42,101 nucleotides of DNA, taken from contig JAGRCP010000118.1 in NCBI GenBank assembly GCA_020433455.1, positions 1-42,101 on the forward strand, read 5' to 3'. Below, piece by piece: positions 951 to 27,897 of the stretch. This DNA is from Caldilineaceae bacterium (GTDB lineage: Bacteria; Chloroflexota; Anaerolineae; Caldilineales; Caldilineaceae). The first letter of the stretch is position 1; each line of letters starts with the position of its first letter. The notes under the pieces are model-generated. The model did no database searches and was not told the DNA's origin. It saw only the letters and a list, made by a program, of their open reading frames with translations. The translations under genes were made by a program, and so were the position numbers.

Positions 951-962
951 GGGGGGTGTGGG

Positions 963-4632: not shown

Positions 4633-4689
4633 ACTTGCGACAAACTTGCGACATCACTTGCGACACAAACCACCCAATTTTGTCGCAAG
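4633..4689 (+). promoter_or_regulatory. Four CTTGCGAC boxes upstream of MalT-like regulator
   Basis: ACTTGCGAC occurs at 4633-4641, 4644-4652 and 4656-4664 as direct repeats with starts 11 and 12 bases apart, about one helical turn each. The reverse complement GTCGCAAG is at 4682-4689. The array ends 23 bases upstream of a -35 element, a position suited to an activator. Helical phasing of direct repeats is compatible with the oligomeric MalT family, so autoregulation is a possible reading; the bound protein is not known. Confidence 0.55.
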
Positions 4690-4712
4690 ACGCTCCTCCC
4701 GCGTTTTTCACT

Positions 4713-4741
4713 TTGCCCCCCTTCCGTCACATCGATATAAT
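4713..4741 (+). promoter_or_regulatory. Sigma-70-type promoter of MalT-like regulator 1
   Basis: TTGCCC at 4713-4718 and a perfect TATAAT at 4736-4741 are separated by 17 bases. The start codon at 4749 is only 7 bases past the -10 box, so transcription should begin at or next to the A of the ATG, giving a leaderless mRNA. Confidence 0.6.
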
Positions 4742-4748
4742 CACGTCC

Positions 4749-7370
4749 ATGTCTGACCCGCTGCTCCACACAAAATTGCAGGCGCCCCGGCTGCGGGCCC
4801 GGCTCGTTCCCCGCCCGGCGCTGATCCAACGGCTCAACCAGGGGCGGAGCGGCAAGCTGACCCTCATCTCAGCGGCCGCGGGCTTCGGCAAAACCACCCT
4901 GGCCGGCAGTTGGATCGACGCCCTCCAACGCGCGCCCCTGCCCACGCGGGTCGCCTGGCTCTCGCTGGACGAAAACGACCGGGATCCGGTCCGCTTTCTG
5001 ACGTACCTCATGGCCGCTTTACAGCGCATTGACCCCAACATCGGCGAGTCGGCCCGCTCCATGCTGCAAGCGTCGCCGCCGCCCATTCCGGCCGCGCTCA
5101 CCGCGCTGCTCAACGATGTGGCGGCCCGGCCCGACAGGCTCATGCTGGTGCTGGACGATTACCACGCCGTCGCCGCCCGGCCGGTGGACGAGGCGATGAC
5201 CTTCCTGCTGGATCATCTGCCGCCCCAACTGCATCTGGTGATCACTACCCGGGAAGACCCTGACCTGCCCCTGGCCCGGCTGCGCGTCCGGGGCCTGCTC
5301 ACGGAAGTGCGCACGGCCGATCTGCGCCTGACCGTGGCAGAGGCGGCCGTCTTTCTGCGCGACGTCATGGGGCTGGAACTGACGGAAGAGCAGATCGCCG
5401 CGCTGGAAGCCCGGACCGAGGGCTGGATGGCCGGGCTGCAAATGGCCGCGCTCTCCCTGCGCGGTCGGGAAGACGCGTCCGCCCTGATCCGCGCCTTCAC
5501 CGGCGGGCACCGGTTTGTGCTGGATTATCTGCTGGAAGAGGTGCTGAACCGACAGCCGGGCCATGTGCAGGAATTCCTGCTGCAAACGTCCATCCTCCGC
5601 CAACTGACCGGCCCCCTGTGCGACGCCCTGACCGGAGAAGCTGACGGACGGGAGATGCTGAGGTCCCTGAACCGCGCCAATCTCTTCCTCACGCCCCTGG
5701 ACGATGAGTGGCGCTGGTACCGGTATCACCATCTTTTTGCGGAGCTGCTGCGCCGGCGCCTGCAGCTCCGCGCGGGGGAGGACGAAATCAGGGACCTCCA
5801 CATGCGGGCCTGCGCCTGGTATGAGGCCAATGGCCTGGAGCTGGAGGCGTTTTACCACGCGACAGCGGCCAATGATGTGGACCGCGCCCTGGGCCTGATC
5901 GAAGGGGACGGGCTGCCGCTTTACTTCCGGGGCGAGGCGCTGCCGGTCCGCCAGTGGCTGGAAACGCTGTCGGAAGCCGAGATGCGGGCCCGGCCTGCAC
6001 TGCAGGTGACCTACGCCTCGGTGCTCACCGTCACCGGCCGCCTCCATGAGAACATCGAACCGATTCTCTCCGCGGCGGAAGCGGCCCTGAAAGACGCGAC
6101 CCCGGATGACAAAAGAGATGATCTCCTGGGGCGGATTGCGGCCAACCGGGCCATGTTGGCCGTGCCGAAGAATCAGCCGGAGACCATCATCGCCCAGTCG
6201 CGCCGGGCGCTGGATCTGCTGCACCCGGACAACGCGCCCATGCGCACCATCACGGCCTGGACGCTGGGCTATGCCTACCAGGTGCAGGGGAAACGGGCGG
6301 CCGCGGCCGACGCGTATGCGGAGACCATCGCCCAAAGCCGAAAAGCGGGCAATACCATGCTTGAGATCGCGGCCACGACCTGCGTGGGGCAGATTCAGGA
6401 GACGGAGAATCAGGCCCATGCGGCCGCGCGATCCTTTCGCCGTGTGCTGGAGCTGGTCGGCGATCCGCCGTGGCCCGCGGCGTGCGAGGCGTGCGCGGGG
6501 CTGGCCCGGCTCTATTACGAATGGAACGATTTGGCGGCCGCGGCGGAGTATGCGCGGCAGGGGTTGGCCCTGGCCCGGCAGTTGGAGAATGTGGATACGC
6601 CCGCCGCGTGCGGCCTTCTGCTGGCCCGGGTGAAGCTGGCCCAGGGAGATACAACGGCCGCCTTAACCCGTCTGGCCGAGGCGGAGCAGTTCGTACAGCA
6701 GCATCATTTCGACCAGTGGACGAGTGAGATAGCGGCCCTGCGCATCCGGACGCTGCTGCACCAGGGCGCTCTGGCCGCGGCCGCCCGCCTGGCCGATGCC
6801 CACGATCTGCCCCTCAGTCGGGCGCGGGTGCACCTCGCACAGCATGAGCCCCAAGCGGCCCTTGCGCAACTGGCCCCGCTGCGCGAGCAGGCGGAGGCAA
6901 ACGATTGGGCCGATCAGCGGCTTCAGGTTCTGCTGCTGCAAGCCCAGGCCCAGCAAGCGGCCGGCGCAGGCGGGCAGGCCGTGCAAACGCTGGACGAGGC
7001 TTTGGCGCTTGCCGCGCCGGGCGGCCTGTTGCGTCCGTTTGTGGACGCGGGCCCGGCCATGGCGCCGCTGCTGGCCGCGGCCGCGGCGGAAGGCCGCTCC
7101 CCCCTTTTCGCCCGGCAGGCGCTGGCCGCGCTGGAAGAGACGACCGTCACTCCGCCGCCCCAGCCTCTCCCCGACCCCCTCTCCCGCCGGGAACTCGAAG
7201 TGCTCAGTCTGCTCGCCACCGAACTCACCGGTCCCGAGATTGCCCGGGAGCTGGTGGTTTCCCTCAATACCCTGCGCACGCATACGAAAAATATTTACGC
7301 CAAGTTGAGCGCCACCAGCCGGCGGACGGCCGTCCGCCGCGCGCAGGAACTCGATCTGTTGCCGCGGTAG
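4749..7370 (+). CDS. LuxR-family transcriptional regulator of the MalT type (STAND ATPase)
   Basis: This is an 873-residue signal-transduction ATPase of the MalT/LAL type, which oligomerises on binding an inducer and ATP and then activates transcription. Walker A is AAAGFGKTT at about residues 42-50 and Walker B is LMLVLDDYH at about 131-139. A winged-helix/arm segment and a helical TPR-like sensor region follow. The last ~64 residues are a LuxR helix-turn-helix (SRRELEVLSLLATELTG, then NTLRTHTKNIYAKL). I chose ATG 4749 because the alignable start (SDPLLHTKLQAPRL) begins there; the frame extends upstream to 4635, but that extension would translate the CTTGCGAC boxes and promoter. No ribosome site is seen, consistent with a leaderless transcript. 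Inducer and targets are unknown. Confidence 0.9.
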   Translation: MSDPLLHTKLQAPRLRARLVPRPALIQRLNQGRSGKLTLISAAAGFGKTTLAGSWIDALQRAPLPTRVAWLSLDENDRDPVRFLTYLMAALQRIDPNIGESARSMLQASPPPIPAALTALLNDVAARPDRLMLVLDDYHAVAARPVDEAMTFLLDHLPPQLHLVITTREDPDLPLARLRVRGLLTEVRTADLRLTVAEAAVFLRDVMGLELTEEQIAALEARTEGWMAGLQMAALSLRGREDASALIRAFTGGHRFVLDYLLEEVLNRQPGHVQEFLLQTSILRQLTGPLCDALTGEADGREMLRSLNRANLFLTPLDDEWRWYRYHHLFAELLRRRLQLRAGEDEIRDLHMRACAWYEANGLELEAFYHATAANDVDRALGLIEGDGLPLYFRGEALPVRQWLETLSEAEMRARPALQVTYASVLTVTGRLHENIEPILSAAEAALKDATPDDKRDDLLGRIAANRAMLAVPKNQPETIIAQSRRALDLLHPDNAPMRTITAWTLGYAYQVQGKRAAAADAYAETIAQSRKAGNTMLEIAATTCVGQIQETENQAHAAARSFRRVLELVGDPPWPAACEACAGLARLYYEWNDLAAAAEYARQGLALARQLENVDTPAACGLLLARVKLAQGDTTAALTRLAEAEQFVQQHHFDQWTSEIAALRIRTLLHQGALAAAARLADAHDLPLSRARVHLAQHEPQAALAQLAPLREQAEANDWADQRLQVLLLQAQAQQAAGAGGQAVQTLDEALALAAPGGLLRPFVDAGPAMAPLLAAAAAEGRSPLFARQALAALEETTVTPPPQPLPDPLSRRELEVLSLLATELTGPEIARELVVSLNTLRTHTKNIYAKLSATSRRTAVRRAQELDLLPR

Positions 7371-10843: not shown

Positions 10844-10947
10844 AATCGGCCGAAACGCTGTACCGCCAAGTTAAAAGCGGACACTTACTCAGCCCTGGGC
10901 ATAGCGGCAAAATGGCGGCCGCCCGTGGTACTTAACCATCGTAGCTG

Positions 10948-10956
10948 TGATATACT
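10948..10956 (+). promoter_or_regulatory. Extended -10 promoter of MalT-like regulator 2
   Basis: TGATATACT has the TG-N-TATACT form of an extended -10 element; the hexamer is at 10951-10956. The matching -35 position is poor (GTACTT at 10928). The ATG at 10965 is eight bases past the -10, so the transcript would be leaderless or nearly so, as proposed for regulator 1. Confidence 0.45.
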
Positions 10957-10964
10957 ATTACGTT

Positions 10965-13616
10965 ATGATAGCGCCGTTACTGTTGACAAAATTCCACATT
11001 CCGGCTCTTCGTGCCCAATTGGTCCCCCGTCAGCGGCTGCTGGAACAAATAAGAACTTCGGGCAAACTCTCCCTCATCTGCGCCCCTGCCGGTTTCGGCA
11101 AAACGACGCTGGCCAGTTGCTTATTGGCCCGACAGGAGCGGCATGTGGCTTGGCTGTCGCTGGACGAAGCCGACAATGACGCGCAACGCTTCTTCGTCTA
11201 TCTGATTACAGCCCTCAACCGCAATGATTCCGTCATCGGGAAGACATCGTTGGAGATGTTGCAAACCCATAAAGCGCCGGCGGTTGCCACGCTCTTCTCG
11301 CATCTCATCAACGATCTGGCCCAATCATCGGAACAGCATGTTCTGGCACTGGATGACTACCATCTGATTCAGAACAAAACCATTCACGACGCCCTCGCTT
11401 TTTTGCTGGAGAACCAGCCGCCACAATTGCATCTCGTCATGATCAGCCGGACCGAACCGCCATTGCCGTTGGCAAAACTGCGGGCAAAAAATCAGCTGGT
11501 AACGCTGGGCGCCAACGATTTGCGCTTTACCCGGAGCGAAACCGAAACCTTCCTCAACCAAACCATGAAGCTGGGGCTGACCGACGAACAGGTTACTCAA
11601 CTGGACGCCAAAACCGAAGGCTGGATTACCGGCTTACAATTAGCGGCGTTAAGCCTGCAAAGCGCCGACGATGCCGACCGCCTGGTGCGGACGCTAACCG
11701 GAGATAATCGCTATGTGGCTGATTATCTGATCGACGAGGTGCTTTCATTGCAGCCCCGGGAGATTCAGCAATTTTTGCTGCACACGTCCATCCTCAGCCG
11801 GTTATGCGCCGATCTGTGCGACGCCGTAACAGGGGCGAAAAACAGCCAGCAGATGCTGGAGATGCTGGATAAAAACAATCTGTTCCTCATTCCGCTGGAT
11901 GACACCCGCCGCTGGTATCGCTATCATCAACTCTTTGCCGATATGCTGCGCCATCGGCTTGAAGAACAACATCCCGATTTGCGCCCGCAGCTGTATCGGC
12001 GGGCGTTTGATTGGCACCGTGAGGCCGGGCTGCAAATGCAGGCCATCCACTACGCGCTGCAAGGAAAGATGTATGCCGAAGCCGCCGATCTGATTGAAGA
12101 AATAGGTCATCGAACCTATTGGCGCAACCTGGCCGGAAATATAGGCGAGTGGTTACAGCAAATTCCGCGTTCCGTCATCGAAACGCGTCCTCAGTTGCGA
12201 ATTTTGCTGGTATTGGTCTTGATTGACCGAGGTCAAATTCGGGCTGTTGAAGAAGAGCTTGAACGTCTGGAGCGGTATCTGGCCGAGGGTCGCTCTTCGG
12301 ACGAGACAAAAAACCTTAAGTTTGAGGGCCAAATCCGGGCAATGCAGTCAGCCATGGCGTATCACCGCTATTTTGACGGCTCGATGACCGCCGCGTACGC
12401 CGACCGCGCGCTGGAAATTCTTCCGGAAAGCCCCCCTTTTGACCGATGCGTGGCGGCTTTTCATGGCGGCGGCGCATATACGTTACTGGGAGAGTTGGAT
12501 AAGGCCCGCGAGCTCCTGGCGGAATCGCTGCATTTGAGCAAAATTACCGGGACGCCGCTGGACAAAATGCTGGCGCAGAGCAACCTGGGGAAAGTGGAGC
12601 TGGTTGCCGGCAATCTTGACCGGGCGCACTCTTATTTTTCCCGGACGTGCGCAATGGCAGAAGAGATTGTCATTCGGCAAGCGAGCGCCTTTTCCGATGC
12701 GCTGACCGGTCTGGGCATCGTTCATTATCTGCAAAATGATCTTGAAACCGCACAAAAGTTCATTGAGCAGTCGATTGATGTGAGCGGCACGGACGAGTTT
12801 TTGGATCGATTGCTGGTGGCCTATGTTGCGATGATGCGGGTGCATTATGCACGGGGCAATATTGACTATGCAGCCGCGGTATTACGGCAGGCTACGAAGG
12901 TAATGACCCGGTTCAGTTCACCGCACAGCATTAACAATCAACTGGCGATAGAGCAGGCGCGCCTATGGTTTCTTGAGGAAAACAAAATGCAAGCCGAGGC
13001 CTGGGCCGCCAAGCAAACCGGTCTCCCCGGCACATTTGAGAACGAGGCGGCGCTGATGCTGGCCGCGCAAATCTTTCTGGCCCGGGCAGACTACAGCCGG
13101 GCTGAAGCGCTCCTGTCTGCCTTACTGGCAAAGGCCGAAGAGCAAGGACGTTTTTGCAGCGTGATTCACATAGAGATTCTCCTGGCAGAAACCCGGCAAT
13201 TGCAAGAAAACCTTCCTCAGGCAATGGCGCATTTACAACAGGCGCTGGTATTGGCCGAACCGCAATCCGTGATCCGCCCGTTTCTGGATGCCGATCCCGC
13301 GATAGGCGACTTGCTCTTCCAACTACGGCGCACCGAAGAGCTGACCCCTCCTGTCGCCGATTTTGCGGACAGCCTGTTGGCGTCCCGGCAATCCGCGCCG
13401 AATGCGTCCCCGGCTTTGGGAGCCGCACAACTCACCCCCCGCGAAATAGAAGTTTTGCGCCACCTGTCCGCCGGCCACACCTATGCCCAAATTGCCGCCA
13501 ACCTGATGATCACGGAAAACACCCTCAAATACCATATCAAAAACATCTATAGCAAGCTCGACGTCAGCAATCGAGTGCAGGCCATCATCACCGCCCACGA
13601 GTTACAGTTATTATAG
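10965..13616 (+). CDS. LuxR-family transcriptional regulator of the MalT type, next to rdh genes
   Basis: This 883-residue protein is a second MalT-type STAND regulator, clearly related to the one at 4749 but diverged. Walker A is CAPAGFGKTT (about residues 39-48) and Walker B is LALDDYHL (about 127-134). The arm carries TEGWITGLQLAALSL, and a long helical sensor domain follows. A LuxR helix-turn-helix ends the protein (TPREIEVLRHLSAGHTYAQI, then ENTLKYHIKNIYSKL). ATG 10965 is chosen since family similarity starts at LLLTKFHIP; GTG 10947 would add six residues and overlap the promoter. It ends 278 bases before rdhA on the same strand, separated by a hairpin, a promoter and a riboswitch. It is a good candidate for an activator of the rdh operon, but that is inference from position. 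Confidence 0.88.
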   Translation: MIAPLLLTKFHIPALRAQLVPRQRLLEQIRTSGKLSLICAPAGFGKTTLASCLLARQERHVAWLSLDEADNDAQRFFVYLITALNRNDSVIGKTSLEMLQTHKAPAVATLFSHLINDLAQSSEQHVLALDDYHLIQNKTIHDALAFLLENQPPQLHLVMISRTEPPLPLAKLRAKNQLVTLGANDLRFTRSETETFLNQTMKLGLTDEQVTQLDAKTEGWITGLQLAALSLQSADDADRLVRTLTGDNRYVADYLIDEVLSLQPREIQQFLLHTSILSRLCADLCDAVTGAKNSQQMLEMLDKNNLFLIPLDDTRRWYRYHQLFADMLRHRLEEQHPDLRPQLYRRAFDWHREAGLQMQAIHYALQGKMYAEAADLIEEIGHRTYWRNLAGNIGEWLQQIPRSVIETRPQLRILLVLVLIDRGQIRAVEEELERLERYLAEGRSSDETKNLKFEGQIRAMQSAMAYHRYFDGSMTAAYADRALEILPESPPFDRCVAAFHGGGAYTLLGELDKARELLAESLHLSKITGTPLDKMLAQSNLGKVELVAGNLDRAHSYFSRTCAMAEEIVIRQASAFSDALTGLGIVHYLQNDLETAQKFIEQSIDVSGTDEFLDRLLVAYVAMMRVHYARGNIDYAAAVLRQATKVMTRFSSPHSINNQLAIEQARLWFLEENKMQAEAWAAKQTGLPGTFENEAALMLAAQIFLARADYSRAEALLSALLAKAEEQGRFCSVIHIEILLAETRQLQENLPQAMAHLQQALVLAEPQSVIRPFLDADPAIGDLLFQLRRTEELTPPVADFADSLLASRQSAPNASPALGAAQLTPREIEVLRHLSAGHTYAQIAANLMITENTLKYHIKNIYSKLDVSNRVQAIITAHELQLL

Positions 13617-13671: not shown

Positions 13672-13699
13672 TTCAAAAAACGCCCGATTCCTCTATGAT
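13672..13699 (+). promoter_or_regulatory. Candidate promoter of the rdh operon
   Basis: TTCAAA (13672-13677) and TATGAT (13694-13699) are 16 bases apart. Transcription would start near 13706, immediately ahead of the riboswitch core, which supports the assignment. The -35 is only a 4/6 match. Confidence 0.45.
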
Positions 13700-13705
13700 A
13701 GTTCT

Positions 13706-13805
13706 GTAATTCACAAGCGCTGATGAGGAAGCCGGTGGAAGTCCGGCGCTGTCCCGCAACTGTAACCCTGCCAGGCAGGCAAGCCAGACACTCATGGTGA
13801 TAGAG
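13706..13805 (+). promoter_or_regulatory. Cobalamin riboswitch aptamer upstream of rdhA
   Basis: The conserved cobalamin (B12-box) core is present in order: GAGGAAGCCGGTGGAAGTCC at 13725-13744, GGCGCTG, CCCGCAACTGTAA at 13753-13765, a variable stem (CCTGCCAGGCAGG), and AAGCCAGACAC at 13781-13791. These are the classical invariant elements of the RF00174-type aptamer, including GCCGGTGGAAGTCCGGC pairing. It sits between the promoter and a terminator 89 bases ahead of the rdhA start. The encoded enzyme depends on a corrinoid, so the leader links expression to cofactor supply. Whether ligand turns the operon on or off cannot be decided by eye. Confidence 0.9.
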
Positions 13806-13857
13806 ATGTAGCTCCGGCAGAGAGCCACATCACGGTTTCGTGCCGTGGTGTTTTTTT
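13805..13857 (+). terminator. Riboswitch expression platform: competing hairpin and intrinsic terminator
   Basis: CATCACGG (13828-13835) pairs with CCGTGGTG (13843-13850), one wobble, followed by seven T (13851-13857): a standard intrinsic terminator. GATGTAGCT (13805-13813) can instead pair with AGCCACATC (13823-13831), one mismatch. The two folds share bases 13828-13831 and exclude each other, as expected for a transcriptional riboswitch. Confidence 0.75.
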
Positions 13858-13893
13858 CGTTCAAATCGCATCCGATTACACAGGAGGAGAGCA

Positions 13894-15438
13894 ATGACAG
13901 AAACCGCCGTCAAAAGCGGGCCTTCCCGCCGCGATTTTCTGAAAATCGGCGGGGCCGCGGCGCTAGTGGTTCAGGCCGGCGGATTGGTTGCCGCCGGGAA
14001 TGTTCAGGGCTCAAGCGCCGAAACCTACACCGGCTGGGAATCATTTAACCCCGCGACCCAATTTTTCAACCGCAAACCGTTCGAGTTTGAAGGTCCGGCC
14101 CATCTGCCTGTCGCCGATGTGCGGCGCCCCAGCCACATGACCGATTATGTTTTTGGTCGGGTGGCAACCTTCCAAAGAGCGTATGAGGCGAATCCGACCT
14201 GGACGCCGGATGATCCGGTTGAGGATTTGGGCGTGCCGGATCCGCTGGTGGCTTTTTACAAGGAATATCCGGAGCGGCTGGAATGGGATTATCGTACGTT
14301 CAGCGAAACGATTCCCACCCGCGATGAAGACTACAAGGTTTACGGCAATTATTATAAATTGGCCGATGCCTACTCCTCCGGCTTCACCGCGCATGCGGCC
14401 TATCTTCCAACAGCCGGATCCCCTCCGGAAGAATCCGACTTTATGGAGATGCAACGAAACTGGCCCGAGCCAAAACCCATCGGCGACCCGGTCCCCTTCA
14501 AGAACGAAGAGAAAGCGGCTGAGTTCATCAAAGAAGTGGCCCACCGCTACGGAGCAACGCTGGTTGGCATTACAAGAGCCAAAATCGACTATTTCTACTC
14601 TGAAGGCTGGGCCGGTTGTCCGGAAGATTATGACTATTCGAAGTTACCGGAACACTGGCAATATGTCATCGTCATCGGCGTACCAATGGAGTGGGACACC
14701 GTACTGGCCAGTCCCCAGGCTTCAACCAGCTATGAAGGCTATGATCGCGTGTCAACGGCAGCTGTTCGTCTGGAAGGGGTGATCAAGAATCTCGGATATC
14801 CGGCCCGGGCCAGTACGCCCATGACATACTACGACATGATCGTACCGCCGTTTGCGATTGAAGCGGGCCTGGGCGAAGTGAGCCGCCCCGGCTACTGCAT
14901 CACGCCCGAATTGGGGAGTAACTGTCGTCTGGCCGCTGTTGTCACAAACTTGCCCATGGCGACCGACAAGCCGATTAAATTCGGCGTGGAAGAATTCTGT
15001 AACAGCTGTAAAATCTGCGCCGAGCAGTGCCCATCCGGCGCCATTTCAATGGCCGACAGCCCTGATGAGCAGGAATGGGGTACCGGACCGGTTCTGCGCG
15101 GATACAAACACTGGTACATCAATAACGGTGCGTGCTATAACTTCTGGCGCGAGAGTATGGGTCCGTTGGGATGTCGCTTGTGCGTGGCCGTCTGTCCCTA
15201 TAGCCGCAAAGACAACTGGATCCACCAGTTAGCCCGGGAAGTTGACCCGCGTGATCCCACAGGCATCACCCGCGAGAGCTTACTCTTTATGCAAAAGAAT
15301 TTCTTCGATTATCCGGAAGCGGTCGAGTATCGTCGCGTCGGCAGCGGCGGCCACTTTGCCAGCTACCGACCTGAACCGGCCTTCCTGCATGCCGAAGATT
15401 TTCTGGACATTCCAATCACCAGTCCGCATGCAGATTAA
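13894..15438 (+). CDS. rdhA: Reductive dehalogenase catalytic subunit
   Basis: RdhA enzymes remove halogen from organohalides using a corrinoid and two 4Fe-4S clusters on the outer face of the membrane, as terminal reductases of organohalide respiration. The 514-residue protein has a Tat signal (SRRDFLKIGG, residues about 11-20) and then a hydrophobic stretch to about 40. The corrinoid domain carries the family motif GLGEVSRPGYCITPELG. Cluster one is FCNSCKICAEQCP (first Cys 369); cluster two is Cys 414, then 12 residues, then CRLCVAVCP, the usual truncated second motif. AGGAGGA precedes ATG 13894 by about five bases; the same frame upstream to 13840 lies in the terminator and is not used. 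The export signal and partner genes favour a respiratory rather than a cytosolic enzyme. Substrate unknown; corrinoid dependence is inferred from the family and the riboswitch. Confidence 0.93.
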   Translation: MTETAVKSGPSRRDFLKIGGAAALVVQAGGLVAAGNVQGSSAETYTGWESFNPATQFFNRKPFEFEGPAHLPVADVRRPSHMTDYVFGRVATFQRAYEANPTWTPDDPVEDLGVPDPLVAFYKEYPERLEWDYRTFSETIPTRDEDYKVYGNYYKLADAYSSGFTAHAAYLPTAGSPPEESDFMEMQRNWPEPKPIGDPVPFKNEEKAAEFIKEVAHRYGATLVGITRAKIDYFYSEGWAGCPEDYDYSKLPEHWQYVIVIGVPMEWDTVLASPQASTSYEGYDRVSTAAVRLEGVIKNLGYPARASTPMTYYDMIVPPFAIEAGLGEVSRPGYCITPELGSNCRLAAVVTNLPMATDKPIKFGVEEFCNSCKICAEQCPSGAISMADSPDEQEWGTGPVLRGYKHWYINNGACYNFWRESMGPLGCRLCVAVCPYSRKDNWIHQLAREVDPRDPTGITRESLLFMQKNFFDYPEAVEYRRVGSGGHFASYRPEPAFLHAEDFLDIPITSPHAD

Positions 15439-15449
15439 GGAGAGATACG

Positions 15450-15755
15450 ATGTTTTTTGACGGCAATATATTCTGGCTCTTCATGGGAATTCTGACTGTC
15501 GTCGTTGGCGGCGGGTTTAACGAATTCGCCAAGAGCCGCGGCTGGACGCTCACCTGGTGGAAATGGGCGCTGGCCGTTGTTTGGTACATCATCTTTATGA
15601 TGGGCTTTTACGCCTGGGGAACCCTGATCGGAGAAAATGAAGGCAGCGCCGGTTTCAGATTCTTCCTGATGATCGCGTTCATCAGCGCTATTCTCGCTGT
15701 CGGCCTGTGGCGCTTGCTGGCCATTGGTTCCTCCAAAAACGTCAATACGCAGTAA
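15450..15755 (+). CDS. rdhB: Reductive dehalogenase membrane anchor (RdhB-like)
   Basis: The 101-residue product has three hydrophobic helices (about residues 5-23, 37-60 and 69-91) with little else, the size and layout of RdhB anchors that hold RdhA to the outside of the cytoplasmic membrane. It starts 11 bases after rdhA behind AAGGAGAG, indicating translational coupling. RdhB sequences are poorly conserved, so the call rests on size, topology and position immediately after rdhA. Confidence 0.8.
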   Translation: MFFDGNIFWLFMGILTVVVGGGFNEFAKSRGWTLTWWKWALAVVWYIIFMMGFYAWGTLIGENEGSAGFRFFLMIAFISAILAVGLWRLLAIGSSKNVNTQ

Positions 15756-15761
15756 ATAGAT

Positions 15762-15795
15762 CGACAGTCTTGCGTTGAAGAACGCAAGACTGTCG
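15762..15795 (+). repeat. Perfect 15-bp intra-operon hairpin
   Basis: CGACAGTCTTGCGTT (15762-15776) pairs exactly with 15781-15795 around a GAAG tetraloop, seven bases past the rdhB stop. No T-tract follows. It could protect the 3' end of an rdhAB message, cause partial termination or be a processing site. Downstream, CAGTCTGGAG is repeated at 15808 and 15828. Confidence 0.6.
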
Positions 15796-15845
15796 CACTC
15801 TGCAAGCAGTCTGGAGTCAGAGAATCAGTCTGGAGAGAAAGAATA

Positions 15846-17633
15846 ATGGCTCACAATCACGTAGAGCAATATCCGGCCCTCAATCAAAAATTGCAAACCG
15901 CCCGCCAAAACGCAGATACGCCCCAGGTATGTCTGGCGCTTGCCGATCTGGGGATGGCCCTGTTTCAACGGCGCCGGTATGAAACAGGTTTGCAACATTT
16001 TGAAGAGGCGATCGAATTATCGGCCGCCCTGCCGGATATTGAATTACAGGTGCACTGCTTGAATCTTAAAATGCTGGCGCTTCAACACGTCCCTCGCCTG
16101 CCGGATGCCTATCAAGTGGCTGAGGAAATCTTACAATTAGGCAGAGCCCGTCAAAAGCCCGACATTCAGTGCAACGCGCTGACCAGTCAGGGACAAATTA
16201 TGCTGGAATCAGGCGAACCGGTTATCGCGATCGAAAGGCTGCAAGCTGCCCAGGAGATCGCCCAGCAACTGGGTGAAAAGCGATTGTTGATGAATGTGCT
16301 GGGCGTGATGGGACACGCAAGCCTGGCTGTTGCTGCCGCGGATCAGGCCGGCGTCTACTTCAGACGAGCGCAATCACTGGCCGAAGAGCTGGATGATCCG
16401 GCCGCAAGCATTGGCTTTGAGGGCAATACTGCCATTGTGCTGATCTGGCAAGGCAGACATCCGGAGGCACTCCCCGCCCTTGAGCGGGTCAGAGCCTTTG
16501 CCGAAGAAGCTGACAACCAGACGGCGGAAATTCAAGCCTTGCGGCATCTTGTAAAAACGCATGCGCATCTGAAAAATCAAGCTGAAATCATCAATTACAC
16601 CCAACGCGGCCTGACGTTAGCCGATCCTGACGATGCCGCCACGCGCTTTTTCTTTCTCTCCGCCCAAATTCCCGCTCTGTATCAAGAAGGCCGATTGGCT
16701 GAATCGAAAGAGGCATTGACCGACGCTACGCAAATGATGCAGGGAATCAAAGGTGACCAAAACAGACTCGACTCATGGCTCGTCCTGTGTGAGCTTTATG
16801 CGTTGCTGGAGCTGCCCAATACAGCCGATATTTATCTAACCGCGCTGGATCAAGCCATATCACTCAACCGTCAAAAGGAGCAGGCTCGTCTGCTTAGCCG
16901 CCTGGGCGAGTTGATAACAGATGGAAGACGGCTTATGTATGCGCTGGAAACGCGGTTACCCCAATTAACAGAAAGCAATATTCTCGCTGAACGTTCGATG
17001 TTGCATAGCTTGATTAAGATTTGTATCGACGCGGGCGATTTTGAAAAAGCGATTGCCTACACCCAACGGGCGCTCATGCTGGCAGAAAGGGCTGATGAGC
17101 AGCCGCTGGCAGATTGGTATCGCATGACGCTGACCGACGCGCTGTTTAAAGCAAGGCGATACGCTGACGTTGTTGCAGCCATCAATACGGAGCTCAATGA
17201 TCATCCCGTCACAATCGATAAAGCCCGCGAATTATATCTGCGCCAAATGCAAAGCGATGCCTGCATTGAGCTGAATGATTTCGAAGCGGCGATCCATACG
17301 CTGGAGATCGCTTTAACGTTATCTGATCAGACGGAGCAACCGCAGAGTAAAGCCCGCATTCTGGGGCGACTCGGCTCAGTGTACGCGGAGCGGGGCGATT
17401 TAGAACGCGCCAATCTCTACATGATCAACGCAATTGAAGAGGCGCGCACCTGCAATGATTTAGAAACAGCGGGTGAGTTATTGTGCATACTGGCCCTCAA
17501 TTATCAGGATTTAGGTCAAGCGGATCGAGCGCTGGATTCCTGTGAAGAGGCGATTGGAATATTTCAAGACAAAGAGTCGGATACGCTGATCGCGACAGCG
17601 CTAAGTCTGAAGCAGGAATTACAGCCGGCATAA
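15846..17633 (+). CDS. Tetratricopeptide-repeat protein within the rdh operon
   Basis: This 595-residue protein is almost wholly helical, with successive TPR-type pairs marked by A/G-x-Y/F-x-x-A spacing, for example ALADLGMALFQRRRYETGLQ (about 29-48), ETGLQHFEEAIELS, LGRLGSVYAERGDLERANLY (about 500-520) and LALNYQDLGQADRALDSCEE. No signal peptide, membrane segment or catalytic motif is visible, so it is probably cytoplasmic. It resembles the sensor domains of the MalT-like regulators without ATPase or DNA-binding parts. GGAGAG precedes the ATG, and the stop is 15 bases before rdhC. A role in maturation or chaperoning before Tat export, or in regulation, is possible; neither is shown by sequence. 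Confidence 0.8.
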   Translation: MAHNHVEQYPALNQKLQTARQNADTPQVCLALADLGMALFQRRRYETGLQHFEEAIELSAALPDIELQVHCLNLKMLALQHVPRLPDAYQVAEEILQLGRARQKPDIQCNALTSQGQIMLESGEPVIAIERLQAAQEIAQQLGEKRLLMNVLGVMGHASLAVAAADQAGVYFRRAQSLAEELDDPAASIGFEGNTAIVLIWQGRHPEALPALERVRAFAEEADNQTAEIQALRHLVKTHAHLKNQAEIINYTQRGLTLADPDDAATRFFFLSAQIPALYQEGRLAESKEALTDATQMMQGIKGDQNRLDSWLVLCELYALLELPNTADIYLTALDQAISLNRQKEQARLLSRLGELITDGRRLMYALETRLPQLTESNILAERSMLHSLIKICIDAGDFEKAIAYTQRALMLAERADEQPLADWYRMTLTDALFKARRYADVVAAINTELNDHPVTIDKARELYLRQMQSDACIELNDFEAAIHTLEIALTLSDQTEQPQSKARILGRLGSVYAERGDLERANLYMINAIEEARTCNDLETAGELLCILALNYQDLGQADRALDSCEEAIGIFQDKESDTLIATALSLKQELQPA

Positions 17634-17648
17634 TCGAGGAAACAACCC

Positions 17649-18869
17649 TTGACAAAAGAAATTGAACCCATCCAAAAACGCAAAATCCGGACCAAACAGT
17701 GGGAACGGTGGTTGGGCGTCGCCGCCATCGCTACGATGATTATTGCCTGGTTTATCGGCTACGCTCAAGCCAACGCCGAGATTGAACTGTTTTTGTACCA
17801 GGCCATGCCCGACGCATCCCGCATCGAAAAAGTCAGCAGCGACACCTGGGCGGCTTACACCCTCGACTCGCCGGAGGAACCGGCCGGCTACATCACCGTC
17901 GGCGAAGCAAGCGGCTACGGCGGACCGATGAAGGTGGCTGTGGCTGTCGCTCCCGACGGCAACGTCCTGGGACTTTCGGTCGCGGAACAGCGCGAAACGC
18001 CGGGCTGGTTTAAGCGGGTAATGGACAACAACTTTACGGATCGGCTGATCGGCAAAGGCTATACCGACGCCTTTAATTTGGGCAGCGATGTGGACGGCGT
18101 GACCGGAGCAACCTACACGTCCCGCGCGATCGCCGACGCTGTACGACAGGGAAGCCGCCGCATTGCCGGACAAACCCTCGGCGCAGTTGACGTACCGGAA
18201 GAACCGAGACCCGACATTCAATTCGGCATTCCGGAAATTGTATTGATTGCCCTCTTTGCACTGGGCTATGTAGGCCACCAGCGCAAATTCAAGTACACGA
18301 AACAGGTGCGTTGGGTGAGTATGCTCACCGGCCTGTTTGTCCTGGGCTTCATCTACACCAATCCGCTGACCATTGCCTATATCAATAAATTTTTGCTTGG
18401 CTTCTGGCCGGATTGGCGCACGCATTTGTATTGGTATTTGCTGATCGGCGGGATTATCTTTGTCTTCACCGTGGACAACAAAAACCCGTATTGCAACTGG
18501 TTCTGTCCATTTGGGGCGGCGCAGGAATGTATGGGCGTCGTCGGCGGGGCGAAACCCCGTACGCCGCTGCGGTATCGTACAGCCTTCAAATGGCTGCAAC
18601 GCGGTCTGGCCTGGCTGGCAATTGTCGTGGCGCTGCTCTTCCGCAACCCGGGCATCTCCAGTTATGAGGTCTTCGGCACGCTGTTCGATCTGCAGGGCAG
18701 CATGATGCAGTTTGCGTTGTTGGGGCTGGTGTTGCTGGCAGCGCTGTTTATCAAGCGACCGTGGTGCAATTATCTCTGTCCGCTAAACCCGGTCGAAGAA
18801 TTTATCAGAATGACACGGGGGTGGATCAAGGAATTATGGCCCAAAACAAAAATAAAATCGGCAGGATAA
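17649..18869 (+). CDS. rdhC: RdhC/NosR-like FMN-binding, CX3CP membrane flavoprotein
   Basis: RdhC-type proteins are membrane flavoproteins that carry covalent FMN and are thought to pass electrons from menaquinol to RdhA or to aid its maturation. After an N-terminal helix (about 24-42) an extracytoplasmic FMN-binding domain contains DGVTGAT, a match to the flavinylation signature D-x2-[ST]-G-A-[ST], with Thr155 as predicted attachment site. About five further helices follow, with CNWFCP (about 282) and CNYLCP (about 376), the CX3CP pairs of NosR/NapH-like proteins. Unlike NosR, no C-terminal ferredoxin domain is present. The start is TTG 17649, supported by GAGGA at 17636-17640 and by the absence of a better codon. 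Length 406 residues is normal for RdhC. Confidence 0.85.
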   Translation: MTKEIEPIQKRKIRTKQWERWLGVAAIATMIIAWFIGYAQANAEIELFLYQAMPDASRIEKVSSDTWAAYTLDSPEEPAGYITVGEASGYGGPMKVAVAVAPDGNVLGLSVAEQRETPGWFKRVMDNNFTDRLIGKGYTDAFNLGSDVDGVTGATYTSRAIADAVRQGSRRIAGQTLGAVDVPEEPRPDIQFGIPEIVLIALFALGYVGHQRKFKYTKQVRWVSMLTGLFVLGFIYTNPLTIAYINKFLLGFWPDWRTHLYWYLLIGGIIFVFTVDNKNPYCNWFCPFGAAQECMGVVGGAKPRTPLRYRTAFKWLQRGLAWLAIVVALLFRNPGISSYEVFGTLFDLQGSMMQFALLGLVLLAALFIKRPWCNYLCPLNPVEEFIRMTRGWIKELWPKTKIKSAG

Positions 18870-19060
18870 CCGAATATCTGGTCATCGCTTTTGTGCTGGC
18901 AACCACCGTGCTGGTATTGATGGACATTGGCGGCAACGTAAGCAACGAGCTGGCATCCCGGAGAATCATCAGCACGCCGCAAATTCAGCCGACCGCTACG
19001 GCAACGTTAACGCCGGAAGATCTGCAGGAAATATTGAGAGAAAGTCCTGGCAGTGACTAA
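18836..19060 (+). CDS. Small membrane protein between rdhC and apbE (74 residues)
   Basis: The ATG at 18836 follows AAGGAATT and overlaps the last 34 bases of rdhC. The product has a basic N-terminus (MAQNKNKIGR), one membrane helix (about residues 12-32, including TEYLVIAFVLATTVLVLM) and a proline/threonine-rich tail ending in an acidic helix. The orientation rule puts the tail outside. No family is recognised. Tight overlap in the operon suggests a structural or assembly part of the RdhC complex. GTG 18761 gives a longer frame but lies wholly within rdhC coding sequence. Confidence 0.6.
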   Translation: MAQNKNKIGRITEYLVIAFVLATTVLVLMDIGGNVSNELASRRIISTPQIQPTATATLTPEDLQEILRESPGSD

Positions 19061-19067
19061 GGATCCT

Positions 19068-20105
19068 ATGTCAAACAAAAAACGGATTTCAAGACGAAAC
19101 TTTTTGCAGATCATTGCCGTCGGCACGGTCGCGGGCGCAACCGCTCAATTCAGCGCTGGTGTGCTGACCCAAACAAAGTCGGCCGGCGCCACTCGCTTGC
19201 TCATGGGAACGGTGACGAATCTCACCGTCATCAGCGATGACAAAGCCGCCGCGCAAACCATCATCGACGCGACCTTTAACCGGATGACAGCGCTGGAAGA
19301 GGTGCTGTCGCGCTTCAAGTCGGAGAGCCTGCTCTCTCAACTCAACCGCAGCGGGCAACTGGATAATGCCCACCCGGCCCTGCTCGCGCTCATCGTCCAG
19401 TCGCGCCGGTTGAGTGAACGTTCCGGCGGCGCGTTCGACATCACGGTCAAACCGCTGGTTGATCTATATCAGCGCCATCAGGCCGCAAATTCATTCCCCT
19501 CACAAACGGAAATCGCTGCTGTGTTAGAGAAGGTCGATTATCGGAAAATCCGGATAGATGGGAAACAAGTCATATTCGAGCAGCCGGGAATGTCCATCAC
19601 GCTGGACGGCATTGCCAAAGGGTTCATCGTGGATGAGGGCGTGAAAGTTCTCAATGATGCAGGGTTTGAGAACGTGCTGGTTGAAGCGGGCGGCGATTTG
19701 CTTGCAAGCGGACAGAAATCCGCGGGCGAGGCGTGGCAAATCGGCGTGCAGTCCCCGCGAAAATCGCAGCCGGATATATTAGCGAGGTTGACTATCAGAA
19801 ATCAGGCTGTCGCTACCTCCGGCGACTACATGCAAGCCTTCACCCACGATCTGAGCCACCACCATATCCTCGATCCGCGCACGGGGTATTCCGCGCCGGA
19901 ATCGGCTAGTGCGACCGTCATCGCCCCCTCGACAATGCTGGCGGACGGCCTGGCGACGACGGCAATGGTGCTCGGCCCCCAAATGGGCATATCGCTGATT
20001 AACGAGCTGCCGAATTGCGAAGCCTGCTTGGTTGACAAAAACTTGCAGCAATTTACAACGGCTAACTACCAGGCGCTTTCGGGCAAGGAGATGTTCTCCG
20101 GGTAA
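19068..20105 (+). CDS. apbE: FAD:protein FMN transferase (ApbE), exported
   Basis: ApbE uses FAD as donor to attach FMN to a threonine of membrane flavoproteins, releasing AMP. The 345-residue protein has a twin-arginine signal (SRRNFLQ, residues about 8-14) with a following hydrophobic stretch, placing it outside the membrane. Conserved ApbE motifs are visible: GGAFDITVKPL, TLDGIAKGFIVD, VEAGGDL, HHILDPRTGYSA and the magnesium-site region MLADGLATTAMVLG. ATG 19068 follows AAGGA at 19059-19063; GTG 19053 is a less likely start overlapping the previous gene. The natural target is RdhC Thr155 encoded two genes upstream, so the operon provides its own flavinylation. Confidence 0.92.
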   Translation: MSNKKRISRRNFLQIIAVGTVAGATAQFSAGVLTQTKSAGATRLLMGTVTNLTVISDDKAAAQTIIDATFNRMTALEEVLSRFKSESLLSQLNRSGQLDNAHPALLALIVQSRRLSERSGGAFDITVKPLVDLYQRHQAANSFPSQTEIAAVLEKVDYRKIRIDGKQVIFEQPGMSITLDGIAKGFIVDEGVKVLNDAGFENVLVEAGGDLLASGQKSAGEAWQIGVQSPRKSQPDILARLTIRNQAVATSGDYMQAFTHDLSHHHILDPRTGYSAPESASATVIAPSTMLADGLATTAMVLGPQMGISLINELPNCEACLVDKNLQQFTTANYQALSGKEMFSG

Positions 20106-24708: not shown

Positions 24709-27700
24709 TCAGCCGGCAGAGCGCGCGCAGCGGAAGCCGTTCTCAAACTTAGAATTTTCGGGTTTGGACCACGCACGCGCCCAGGAACGCAAATGACCAA
24801 TGCTGCCGGCATAAGAGCCGCCGCGCAGAATACGGTTAGCCGCATCAGTGTCCGACTCCCGGCCGTCATTGGCATCGTAGGGATAGCTCTTTCGCAGCGA
24901 GTGGGTCCATTCCCAGACGTTGCCGCTCATGTCGTGTGCGCCCACCCAGGAAACGCCTTGCGGAAAGCTGCCCACGGCAACCGGCACATCCGTCATCGCC
25001 TGGGAGGCCGCATTTTCTTCTATATACTCGTTGCCCCAGGGATAAATCCGACTATCGGCGCCGCGCGCGGCGTATTCCCACTCGGCCTCAGTCGGCAGGC
25101 GGGCGCCCCGGGATTCACAAAAAGCGGATGCTTCATACCAGGTAATGTCGGTGCGCGGCTGTTCCGGATCCGTCCATTCGGTTGCATTGGCTGCCTGACC
25201 GCCCAATTGCTCAAACTGTCCGTTTGTGACCTCGTAGCGATCGATCCAAAAACCCTCGGTAAAGCAAATTTCAACCACGGGGCTTTCATTGTCGCTAATG
25301 GAGCTGCCCAACCAAAAGCAGCCTCTGGGCGCCAGGGCCATCTCGACCCCGTTAAACTCCTGGAACCGGGGCTCCCACTGCGTCAATTCTGCAGCAGCCG
25401 TTTCTTTGGCAAGAAACGTTGCCACCGGCGTTTGCTCCAGCGTCGAAATCTCAACAACCACATTTCCCGCGGCCAGCGTTGCCATATTTTCGACTTTCAT
25501 CCGGAACAGCGCTTCGTCTTCAGCAAGGCGCGTGCTGGCCGCCTGGGCCTGGGTTGCAGCCGTTCGGGCATTTGAGCCGACGGCCACGGCAATCGCGGTC
25601 GCCACAACGGCAAGCAGAGACATAACTCCCAATATTACAGAAATACGGCGAAAATTTTGCGCGCGGCGGGCCGTGGCCGCCTCACGCTCCCTGCGTTCTT
25701 CATCAATACGACGTTCTTCTTCACGCATATCAACGCTGGCAACGATATATTCCCGCTCAACCTGGTTGAGTTTCAAAGAAGTGGTTCTTTCCAATTCCTC
25801 AAAGTCGGCCAGGCGCAAGCCCGTAGCCAATAAGCCTACATCGTCATCTGCATCACGCCACTCCGTCGCCATGGCGTTCAAGCGACGTTGCGTCAGCAAT
25901 CCCTCCATCTCTTCATCAAGCCAGATATGGAGGCGCGCCCAGGACGGAATCAGGGCATCATGGGTTATTTCTACGGTCGGTGCGCGGGTCTGTTCATCCC
26001 GATCGATCAGGAGCAGGCGATTTTGGCGACTGCCAAAAGCAGCGAGCAACGCGGCCAAATCATCAGGGACGAGTGAGTGCAGCTCTTCGATGGAAGCCCG
26101 ACGGCGCGTATGCTCAACGCCCTCGCCGATTGTTACGAGCCGTAGAAACAATTGGCGAGCGGCCTGCCTCTGGTCATCCGTCAGATGCTGGTAAATGTCC
26201 TCGGCACGCTGGGCCAATGCCTGGGTTACCCCGCCGATCTCGGCATAATTGGCGAGGGTGATGACATTGGTCCGGCGCGCGTTAAACAACGCCGTGAGCG
26301 CGTACTGAAGCAGGGGCAGGACGCCAAACCCGTTGCCCAGATCGCGCAACATCAGGCTCACCAACCCCTCCTCAAAACGAATATTCAACGCCTGAGCCGG
26401 CTGCGTAATCGCGGCAATCAATTCCTCCTGCGAAAAGGGGAGTACAGGCTCCAGCCCCTGGCGATACAGTTCGCCGAAGGCAAGATATTGAAGCGGACGA
26501 TCATAGAAATCCGCGCGCATGGTGATGACGATGCGCAGGCGGCTTCGGGTGTCAGCCGCCGCCGCCACCAGGGTATTCAGGAATCGCTGCCTCTTCTCTT
26601 CGTCGGGAGTCAAGGTAAAGAGCTCCTCAAACTGATCGATGACCAGCACCAATTCGACCCGGTCATCAGCCGGCAGCATCTGTTTCAGCGCACGCGCCAG
26701 CCCCAATTCGTCATGCTGCAGCATGGCAAGCAGGTCCGGCGGCGGCGTGACGGCAACCCGGAGCAGCGCCGACTCCAGCTCCACAAACGGATGGCTCCCC
26801 GGCGTCATGACAACAAAAAACCATTGCGCCGAATTGGGCAACGCTCCCTGGCGCAGGCGGGGCAAAAGTCCGGCCTTCACAACGCTGGATTTGCCGCTTC
26901 CGCTCGCCCCCACAACGGCAAGAAAGCGCGCGTCGGGACTGTCGCCATTCAGGTGCGAGAGCAGACGATTGACCTGACTTTCCCGCCCGAAAAAGCGTCC
27001 GGCATCCCCCTCGTGGAAGGCCTCAATCCCCTTGTACGGATTGGGCACGTCCTTGAGCACGGAGAGCGGAACGGCCTCATTCAGCGTACTGCTCACAACT
27101 GCCGCGCGATAAGCAGACAACATTTCCGTCGCCGATTGAAAGCGTTCGGACGCATCCTGCTTCAAGGCAGTCTGGATAACCGGCTGCAGCGCATTTGGCA
27201 GCTCGGGCCTTATGTCCTTCAGCAAGGGCGTCGGTTTGCGCAGTTGGGCAAACGATTCATGGTTAAACGGGTGTTGGCCCGTCAGCATTTTGAAGAGAAC
27301 CATGCCAAACGCGAACAAATCCGTCGCAGGCGACAGAGTGCCTTTTCCAACTTGCTCAGGCGCTAGATAGTCGATGGTACCCAGAATCTTTGCAACTGTG
27401 ACGTTGTCGTCGCTAACTTGCTTAGAGATGCCGAAATCCGCCAATAAAGCATTGTCTTCGCCGTCAAAGAGAATATTATCAGGTTTGATATCCCGATGAA
27501 TAACCCCGCGTTTATGGGCGAACGACAGCGCAGGTAAAACTTGCCCGATAATGAGGTCAACTTCCGACAAGGGGAGGGGACGGCCATCCTTGAGCCGGTC
27601 GAGCAATGTGCCGCCGGACATCCAACGCAGTACAATGACGGCGTTATTTGGACGACGCCAAAAGTCATAAATCGGAATAATGTGGGGATGTTCCAGGCCC

Positions 27701-27897
27701 GCAACAATTTGGGCCTCCGTTTCAAAGCGGCGAATAAATTCGGAATCCCGGGCATATCTCTGTGAAATAACCTTAACGGCCACGGTCCGATTCATCACGT
27801 TCAAATCGGTCGCACGGTAAACCGTACTAAATCCGCCCGCCCCAACCTGTTCATGAATCTGGTATCCTTCTATAATGGCGCCTGACAGATCGCTCAC
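24709..27897 (-). CDS. Ser/Thr kinase - nSTAND NTPase - TM - FGE-like fusion protein
   Basis: This 1062-residue protein joins four modules. An active-looking Hanks-type kinase occupies about 10-265: glycine loop GAGGFSTV, Lys42, HRDIKPDN (134-141), DFG (154-156). A STAND NTPase follows from PNPYKGIEAF and FFGRE (about 290-305), with Walker A VVGASGSGKSS (about 324) and Walker B LVLVIDQFEELF (about 419). One membrane helix lies near 750-775. The C-terminal ~220 residues form a formylglycine-generating-enzyme-like domain (GCFWLGSS, WIDRYEVTNGQFEQL, RLPTEAEWEYAARGA, DMSGNVWEWT, RILRGGSY, NGFRCA). The cysteines used for catalysis in true FGE (after GGSY) are absent, so it is probably a binding or sensing domain outside the membrane. 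It is 49 bases downstream of an XRE regulator on the same strand. Confidence 0.92.
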   Translation of the reverse strand: MSDLSGAIIEGYQIHEQVGAGGFSTVYRATDLNVMNRTVAVKVISQRYARDSEFIRRFETEAQIVAGLEHPHIIPIYDFWRRPNNAVIVLRWMSGGTLLDRLKDGRPLPLSEVDLIIGQVLPALSFAHKRGVIHRDIKPDNILFDGEDNALLADFGISKQVSDDNVTVAKILGTIDYLAPEQVGKGTLSPATDLFAFGMVLFKMLTGQHPFNHESFAQLRKPTPLLKDIRPELPNALQPVIQTALKQDASERFQSATEMLSAYRAAVVSSTLNEAVPLSVLKDVPNPYKGIEAFHEGDAGRFFGRESQVNRLLSHLNGDSPDARFLAVVGASGSGKSSVVKAGLLPRLRQGALPNSAQWFFVVMTPGSHPFVELESALLRVAVTPPPDLLAMLQHDELGLARALKQMLPADDRVELVLVIDQFEELFTLTPDEEKRQRFLNTLVAAAADTRSRLRIVITMRADFYDRPLQYLAFGELYRQGLEPVLPFSQEELIAAITQPAQALNIRFEEGLVSLMLRDLGNGFGVLPLLQYALTALFNARRTNVITLANYAEIGGVTQALAQRAEDIYQHLTDDQRQAARQLFLRLVTIGEGVEHTRRRASIEELHSLVPDDLAALLAAFGSRQNRLLLIDRDEQTRAPTVEITHDALIPSWARLHIWLDEEMEGLLTQRRLNAMATEWRDADDDVGLLATGLRLADFEELERTTSLKLNQVEREYIVASVDMREEERRIDEERREREAATARRAQNFRRISVILGVMSLLAVVATAIAVAVGSNARTAATQAQAASTRLAEDEALFRMKVENMATLAAGNVVVEISTLEQTPVATFLAKETAAAELTQWEPRFQEFNGVEMALAPRGCFWLGSSISDNESPVVEICFTEGFWIDRYEVTNGQFEQLGGQAANATEWTDPEQPRTDITWYEASAFCESRGARLPTEAEWEYAARGADSRIYPWGNEYIEENAASQAMTDVPVAVGSFPQGVSWVGAHDMSGNVWEWTHSLRKSYPYDANDGRESDTDAANRILRGGSYAGSIGHLRSWARAWSKPENSKFENGFRCARSAG

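What the first reader, a model, noticed from the sequence alone, without database searches (positions are those of the whole stretch)
13672..20105. Riboswitch-led, self-flavinylating reductive dehalogenase operon
A cobalamin riboswitch with terminator precedes rdhA-rdhB-TPR-rdhC-small membrane protein-apbE, all on one strand with small gaps or overlaps. The module pairs the corrinoid enzyme with the flavoprotein and the enzyme that would attach FMN to it. This is not the Dehalococcoides-type layout, where rdhAB is mostly followed by regulators only, and the host appears to be another Chloroflexota lineage. The link between cofactor sensing and a whole respiratory module is the most unusual thing in the window.
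Basis: partly seen in the sequence, partly recalled or inferred. Interest (0 to 1): 0.85.

Follow-up and report, generated by a model that had tools for sequence, protein, structure and literature searches.

The report
B12-riboswitch-led dehalogenase-type respiratory operon
An uncultured Caldilineaceae bacterium carries a dehalogenase-type enzyme operon that opens with a vitamin B12-sensing RNA switch, and relatives in other Chloroflexota also tie these genes to B12 uptake genes, so B12 supply and this electron-accepting enzyme appear to be regulated together.

Summary
A cobalamin riboswitch (RF00174, 44.8 bits) and an intrinsic terminator precede rdhA-rdhB-TPR-rdhC-small TM protein-apbE on one strand. 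RdhA belongs to the RDase family, not QueG, and keeps the PceA catalytic Tyr/Arg. RdhC keeps the FMN motif and both CX3CP motifs. RdhC flavinylation by ApbE is already known. The new point is the corrinoid link. The riboswitch is one of two in the host genome; the other leads a CbiQ/ABC import operon. The gene order recurs in 5 of 6 Anaerolineae orthologous loci, and 4 of the 6 have a riboswitch before rdhA (two below Rfam's cut-off). In two loci a second riboswitch leads btuFCD directly behind apbE. The sister RdhAs in Dehalococcoidia all lie within 2.6 kb of cbiZ (5/5, versus 4/126 other rdhA; p=4e-7). Riboswitch-led rdhA also occurs outside this clade. Best reading: a Tat-exported, quinol-fed RdhA/RdhC module wired into the cell's corrinoid regulon, probably reducing an unknown organohalide. 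The switch's sign is unresolved. If it is OFF, as such switches usually are, B12 would repress a B12 enzyme; that leaves open a role in corrinoid scarcity or acquisition. New variant of a known kind.

The parts
13682..13813 (+). Cobalamin riboswitch aptamer (RF00174)
   Evidence: cmscan 44.8 bits, E 3.4e-8, full model 1-189; found again in the whole-genome search
13827..13858 (+). Intrinsic terminator of the riboswitch expression platform; its 5' arm can pair instead with 13805-13809 (antiterminator next to the aptamer's closing helix)
   Evidence: hairpin plus seven T; pairing probability of the alternative helix about 1.0 in the transcript that stops before the 3' arm
13894..15438 (+). rdhA: Tat signal (SRRDF), corrinoid/2x[4Fe-4S] reductive dehalogenase catalytic subunit
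   Evidence: TIGR02486 above cut-off; PceA 4uqu 3.8e-35; Y283 and R345 align with PceA Y246/R305; tree
15450..15755 (+). rdhB: membrane anchor, 101 aa, 3 hydrophobic segments
   Evidence: orthologs 49-66% identical in six loci, conserved WW and GE motifs shared with Dehalococcoidia RdhB; hydropathy
15762..15795 (.). perfect 15-bp inverted repeat between rdhB and the TPR gene; no T run on the + strand
15846..17633 (+). TPR-repeat protein, 595 aa, no signal seen; role unknown, perhaps an assembly factor
   Evidence: TPR_12 9.3e-22; between rdhB and rdhC in the five orthologous loci with the full order; not found in operons of other RdhA clades
17649..18869 (+). rdhC: FMN-binding domain (TGATYT, T155) plus two CX3CP motifs and TM segments
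   Evidence: FMN_bind 2.2e-17, Fer4_5 4.5e-15; motifs conserved in nine RdhC
18836..19060 (+). small single-TM protein, 74 aa
   Evidence: homologs in L035, L037, L039 and, weakly, L060/L061 at the same position; no Pfam match
19053..20105 (+). apbE: FAD:protein FMN transferase with a twin-arginine N-terminus
   Evidence: PF02424 1.3e-78; RRxF N-terminus in all orthologs
10947..13616 (+). MalT-like LuxR-family regulator upstream; possible local regulator, not shown
   Evidence: TPR_MalT and GerE; MalT homolog also upstream in L035 and L040

Best explanation
The operon makes an extracytoplasmic, corrinoid-dependent reductase of the reductive dehalogenase family together with its electron feed. 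ApbE, itself exported, attaches FMN to T155 of RdhC. RdhC passes electrons from the membrane quinol pool to RdhA, which is folded with a cobamide and two [4Fe-4S] clusters in the cytoplasm, exported by Tat and anchored by RdhB. Transcription is gated by a cobalamin riboswitch, so the module is a member of the host's corrinoid regulon and not only of a substrate-sensing circuit. The substrate is most likely an organohalide. Shown by computation: gene content, order, motifs, clade, riboswitch, and recurrence of the corrinoid link. Inferred: electron path, export, co-transcription, substrate class. Unresolved: whether cobalamin represses or activates.
For: RDase family above cut-off; PceA and NpRdhA alignments with catalytic Tyr and Arg/Lys conserved, invariant in 15 aligned RdhAs. 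Tree of 67 sequences: the 7 Anaerolineae and 5 Dehalococcoidia RdhAs form one clade at 100/100, far from QueG. RdhC motifs are those that define RdhC in PMC5928378. Gene order conserved in 5 of 6 loci. Riboswitch before rdhA: window, L037, L040, G097 (L035) and G753 (L039) below cut-off. The host's only other riboswitch leads a CbiQ/ABC importer. Riboswitch-led btuFCD directly behind apbE in L037 and L040, and in G326 with another RdhA clade. Dehalococcoidia sisters: 5/5 within 2.6 kb of cbiZ against 4/126 of other rdhA, p=4e-7.
Against: No substrate or activity was found for any member of this clade. PF13486 is not matched and the N-terminal third is divergent. If the switch is OFF, a corrinoid enzyme repressed by its own cofactor is hard to rationalise as respiration. 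Two of six orthologs (L036, L038) have no riboswitch, and L038 lacks TPR/rdhC/apbE nearby. Host quinone use was not examined.
Confidence: 0.6

Rival explanations
1. Corrinoid-acquisition module: the RdhA-type protein works on external corrinoids (for example reductive removal of an upper ligand) to help uptake or salvage, and is expressed with btuFCD when B12 is scarce.
For: Riboswitches in the host and relatives otherwise lead corrinoid import/assembly operons: btuFCD-cobT, CbiQ/ABC importer, cobT-cobU region. btuFCD sits directly behind apbE in L037, L040 and G326. Sister clade beside cbiZ, cbiB, cobO, btuF. A linker motif CCTCG(A/C) shared by rdh and btu/ECF leaders hints at the same sign of control.
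Against: The dehalogenase catalytic Tyr and Arg are kept. Riboswitch-led rdhA occurs in several distant RdhA clades, which would need repeated recruitment to a corrinoid role, whereas a cofactor-hungry enzyme explains the link at once.
Confidence: 0.18
2. Cofactor-activated respiration (a sub-case of the best explanation): the riboswitch is an ON switch, so the module is made only when cobamide is available.
For: Logical for a corrinoid enzyme. An activating corrinoid riboswitch has been reported (title of PMC10653944; paper not read here). In the window the antiterminator and terminator share the 5' arm next to the aptamer, which allows either sign.
Against: Terminator and aptamer do not overlap. 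Three rdh leaders share a linker motif with btu/ECF leaders, which would be expected to be OFF. Loop-L5 complementarity in the linkers is at chance level and decides nothing.
Confidence: 0.3
3. Scarcity isozyme: an RdhA specialised for low cobamide or an unusual corrinoid that replaces other RdhAs when B12 is short, as MetE replaces MetH.
For: OFF logic; several genomes carry other, riboswitch-free RdhAs.
Against: The host itself has only one rdhA over the cut-off, so there is nothing to replace there.
Confidence: 0.1
4. The riboswitch is a relic or belongs only to the leader of rdhAB; TPR-rdhC-apbE is transcribed separately.
For: 90-nt gap with a perfect 15-bp hairpin between rdhB and the TPR gene.
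Against: No T run on the + strand; same gene order in five loci; aptamer core intact.
Confidence: 0.1

Closest known systems
pceABCT / cprBA-C type organohalide-respiration clusters of Dehalobacter and Desulfitobacterium, with flavinylated RdhC (PceC) (PMC5928378)
   Same: rdhA, rdhB and rdhC in one cluster; RdhC FMN motif and two CX3CP motifs; ApbE/Ftp as maturation enzyme
   Different: Here apbE is in the operon itself, a TPR protein lies between rdhB and rdhC, and a cobalamin riboswitch leads the operon
Dehalococcoides/Dehalogenimonas rdhAB loci
   Same: Nearest RdhA relatives (about 32-38% identity, one clade at 100/100); RdhB family; corrinoid salvage gene cbiZ beside them
   Different: Those have rdhAB, some with a MarR-like gene, and no rdhC/apbE beside them; the riboswitch there precedes cbiZ or salvage genes, not rdhA
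Cobalamin riboswitch regulons of organohalide respirers (Dehalobacter restrictus, PMC4285132)
   Same: RF00174-type aptamer followed by a predicted terminator, transcriptional control
   Different: There the five riboswitches lead corrinoid biosynthesis, salvage and transport operons; here an rdh operon is itself led by one
NapH-like flavinylation-associated respiratory clusters (PMC8238504)
   Same: FMN_bind + NapH/NosR-like membrane protein + ApbE + terminal reductase
   Different: That survey defined organohalide clusters by PF13486, which this RdhA does not match

Membership tests
Reductive dehalogenase (RdhA, TIGR02486) | Score above the curated family cut-off | tested here: met
   179.2 bits against 160.35
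Reductive dehalogenase (RdhA, TIGR02486) | Twin-arginine signal and two [4Fe-4S] motifs | tested here: met
   RRDF at residue 12; CNSCKICAEQCP at 369 and C414-C427-C430-C434P
Reductive dehalogenase (RdhA, TIGR02486) | Catalytic Tyr and Arg/Lys of PceA/NpRdhA | tested here: met
   Y283 and R345, invariant in 15 sequences
Reductive dehalogenase (RdhA, TIGR02486) | Pfam Dehalogenase domain PF13486 (a definition used in some surveys) | tested here: not met
   no match at E 0.001, while paralogs L037:7042 and L040:1828 match
Reductive dehalogenase (RdhA, TIGR02486) | Outside the QueG clade | tested here: met
   QueG joined by a branch of 1.96 changes per column, 100/100
Reductive dehalogenase (RdhA, TIGR02486) | Corrinoid binding and halide release | not testable with these tools
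   needs reconstituted protein
RdhC (definition of PMC5928378) | [S/T]G[A/S]TX[S/T] motif, two CX3CP motifs, several TM segments | tested here: met
   TGATYT at 152, CNWFCP at 282, CNYLCP at 373
ApbE FMN transferase (PF02424) | Family domain over most of the protein | tested here: met
   1.3e-78, residues 51-325
Cobalamin riboswitch (RF00174) | Covariance score above gathering threshold, full model | tested here: met
   44.8 bits, 1-189/189
Cobalamin riboswitch (RF00174) | Ligand-dependent control and its sign | tested here: inconclusive
   folding allows terminator/antiterminator exchange; L5-L13 complementarity at chance
Organohalide respiration | Growth coupled to organohalide reduction | not testable with these tools
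   uncultured host

The most novel reading that the evidence does not exclude
A clade of RdhA proteins, shared by Anaerolineae and Dehalococcoidia, serves corrinoid acquisition or corrinoid-scarcity metabolism rather than ordinary organohalide respiration: with its RdhC/ApbE electron feed it is induced together with btuFCD/cobT when B12 runs short.
Probability: 0.2. Interest if true: 0.85.

Novelty: new variant of a known kind. Interest (0 to 1): 0.6.

Why it matters
Putative rdhA genes occur in Anaerolineae, but reductive dehalogenation by this class had not been confirmed experimentally when PMC9303371 was written. This clade has an unusual, recurrent regulatory and genomic link to corrinoids that makes a sharp prediction: either B12 switches the enzyme on (cofactor-gated respiration) or it switches it off (a paradox that points to a corrinoid-scarcity function). 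One in vitro transcription assay separates the two. It also gives a functional handle on the cbiZ-linked RdhAs of Dehalococcoides and Dehalogenimonas.

Tried and rejected
AlphaFold model of RdhA from eight sequences: mean pLDDT 50, too poor for a fold search, so none was run. Kissing-loop (L5-L13) analysis to decide the sign: matches at chance level. Promoter scan: the -35/-10 pair at 13672-13699 would cut into the aptamer's 5' strand and is discounted. QueG reading rejected by tree and catalytic Tyr. Idea that cbiZ adjacency just reflects rdhA-dense genomes rejected by comparison with 126 other rdhA. One more paper, PMC10772276, could not be opened.

Full report
OBSERVATION. The finding is real. 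cmscan places one cobalamin riboswitch at 13682-13813, followed by a hairpin plus seven T. Then come rdhA, rdhB, a TPR gene, rdhC, a small TM protein and apbE, all on the + strand. Family searches name rdhA (TIGR02486 over cut-off), rdhC (FMN_bind, Fer4_5) and apbE. rdhB and the small protein have no family match and are named by position and orthologs. A perfect 15-bp hairpin without a + strand T run lies between rdhB and the TPR gene, so a single transcript is likely but not shown.

HOST. The genome (G000, 5.25 Mb, 98.97% complete) is in the same family as G097, whose contig has the length and rdhA of a Caldilineaceae MAG contig. It has one rdhA above the cut-off and two cobalamin riboswitches. 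The second leads unassigned proteins, a CbiQ-type protein and a double ABC ATPase, which reads as a corrinoid or cobalt importer. No CobT or CbiZ was found, so the host may depend on imported cobamide (inference from a draft genome).

CONSERVATION. Six orthologous loci were found in other Anaerolineae. Five keep rdhA-rdhB-TPR-rdhC-apbE; the small protein was detected in three of them by blastp; L038 keeps only rdhAB. The rdhA of L039 carries a frameshift. A riboswitch precedes rdhA in L037 and L040 above the gathering score. In the genome-wide search it also does in G097 (= L035; 26.0 bits) and G753 (= L039; 26.3 bits), below the curated cut-off but at the expected place and with visible core motifs. 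L036 and L038 have none.

CORRINOID LINK. In L037 and L040 a further riboswitch directly behind apbE leads btuF-btuC-btuD; in L037 cobT follows, and in L040's genome cobT lies just beyond. In G753 the other riboswitch leads btuF-btuC-cobT; in G097 it leads a set of secreted proteins followed, by inspection, by further corrinoid genes. In L037 and L040 a second, distant rdhA is also riboswitch-led. In G252 and G326, which carry RdhAs of another clade, an operon rdhA-rdhB-rdhC-small protein-apbE has a riboswitch upstream (in G326 just below cut-off), and in G326 riboswitch-btuFCD follows. In most other Anaerolineae rdhA loci scanned there is no riboswitch.

TREE. With 67 sequences the window protein and its six orthologs form one clade (100/100) with five Dehalococcoidia RdhAs, apart from the other sampled Dehalococcoides RdhAs and far from QueG. 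The five sisters lie beside cbiZ, in two loci with cbiB and cobO, in one with btuF. Within four Dehalococcoidia genomes 5/5 clade members but only 4/126 listed other rdhA lie within 3 kb of a cbiZ (Fisher p=4e-7; at 6 kb 16/126, p=7e-5). The five are related copies, so the effective number is smaller than five.

MECHANISM. RdhA keeps the Tyr and Arg that act in PceA. RdhC meets the published definition (PMC5928378). ApbE starts with a twin-arginine motif in every ortholog. This supports quinol to RdhC(FMN) to RdhA electron flow outside the membrane, by analogy with PceC and NapH-like systems (PMC5928378, PMC8238504); it was not tested.

SIGN OF THE SWITCH. The terminator does not overlap the aptamer, and its 5' arm can pair with a segment next to the aptamer's closing helix. 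Three rdh leaders share a CCTCG(A/C)-type linker motif with btu/ECF leaders, which suggests the same sign, usually repression. The window's own leader lacks this motif and loop-loop complementarity is at chance. An activating corrinoid riboswitch has been reported (title of PMC10653944). The sign is left open, leaning to repression.

PRIOR ART. In Dehalobacter restrictus the five cobalamin riboswitches lead corrinoid operons, which are repressed by B12 (PMC4285132). PMC5102406 mentions riboswitches of unstated class upstream of tceA. Searches of the held library found no description of a cobalamin riboswitch leading an rdh operon; the library lacks most subscription journals, among them the Desulfitobacterium riboswitch survey, so this is not proof of novelty.

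VERDICT. An ordinary-looking RDase operon in parts, with an unusual and recurrent corrinoid regulation. New variant of a known kind; substrate and sign of control are the open points.

Noticed in passing
G751:C19:57149-57244 (L087:3150-3245): A weak, partial cobalamin riboswitch hit (23.4 bits) precedes what looks by eye like a corrinoid methyltransferase system (methyltransferase-like, corrinoid protein, RACo-like), another B12-dependent operon under a possible B12 switch.
   Followed up: no
L040:13904-14251 and L037:15131-15367: A TatA/B-like gene (by inspection) lies next to the operon between apbE and btuF in L040, with a homologous stretch in L037.
   Followed up: no
L060:6009-6257, L058:7154-7498, L059:8400-8870, L064:4797-5090: Small zinc-ribbon (Zn_ribbon_8/FmdB-like) proteins beside rdhAB in several Dehalococcoidia loci (one Pfam-confirmed) and, by eye, between riboswitch and rdhA in G252/G326.
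   Followed up: partly
L037:5730-6365, L039:7949-8581, L040:6472-7083: Homologous TetR-type regulator genes stand divergently upstream of the operon in three orthologous loci; none found in the window.
   Followed up: no
L039:9243-9264: rdhA of this MAG is split by a frameshift (assembly error or decay).
   Followed up: no
window 30-3962: Type III restriction-modification genes: N6_N4 methylase (partial match) and ResIII/RE_endonuc subunit.
   Followed up: no
window 24709-27897 (-): One protein joins a Ser/Thr kinase, an nSTAND1 NTPase and an FGE-sulfatase domain.
   Followed up: no
window 4635-7370 and 10947-13616: Two MalT-like LuxR regulators in one window; the second is directly upstream of the riboswitch.
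   Followed up: no
G413, G438, G559, G614: Dehalococcoidia genomes carry 4-7 cbiZ copies each, several beside rdhA genes of other clades too.
   Followed up: partly
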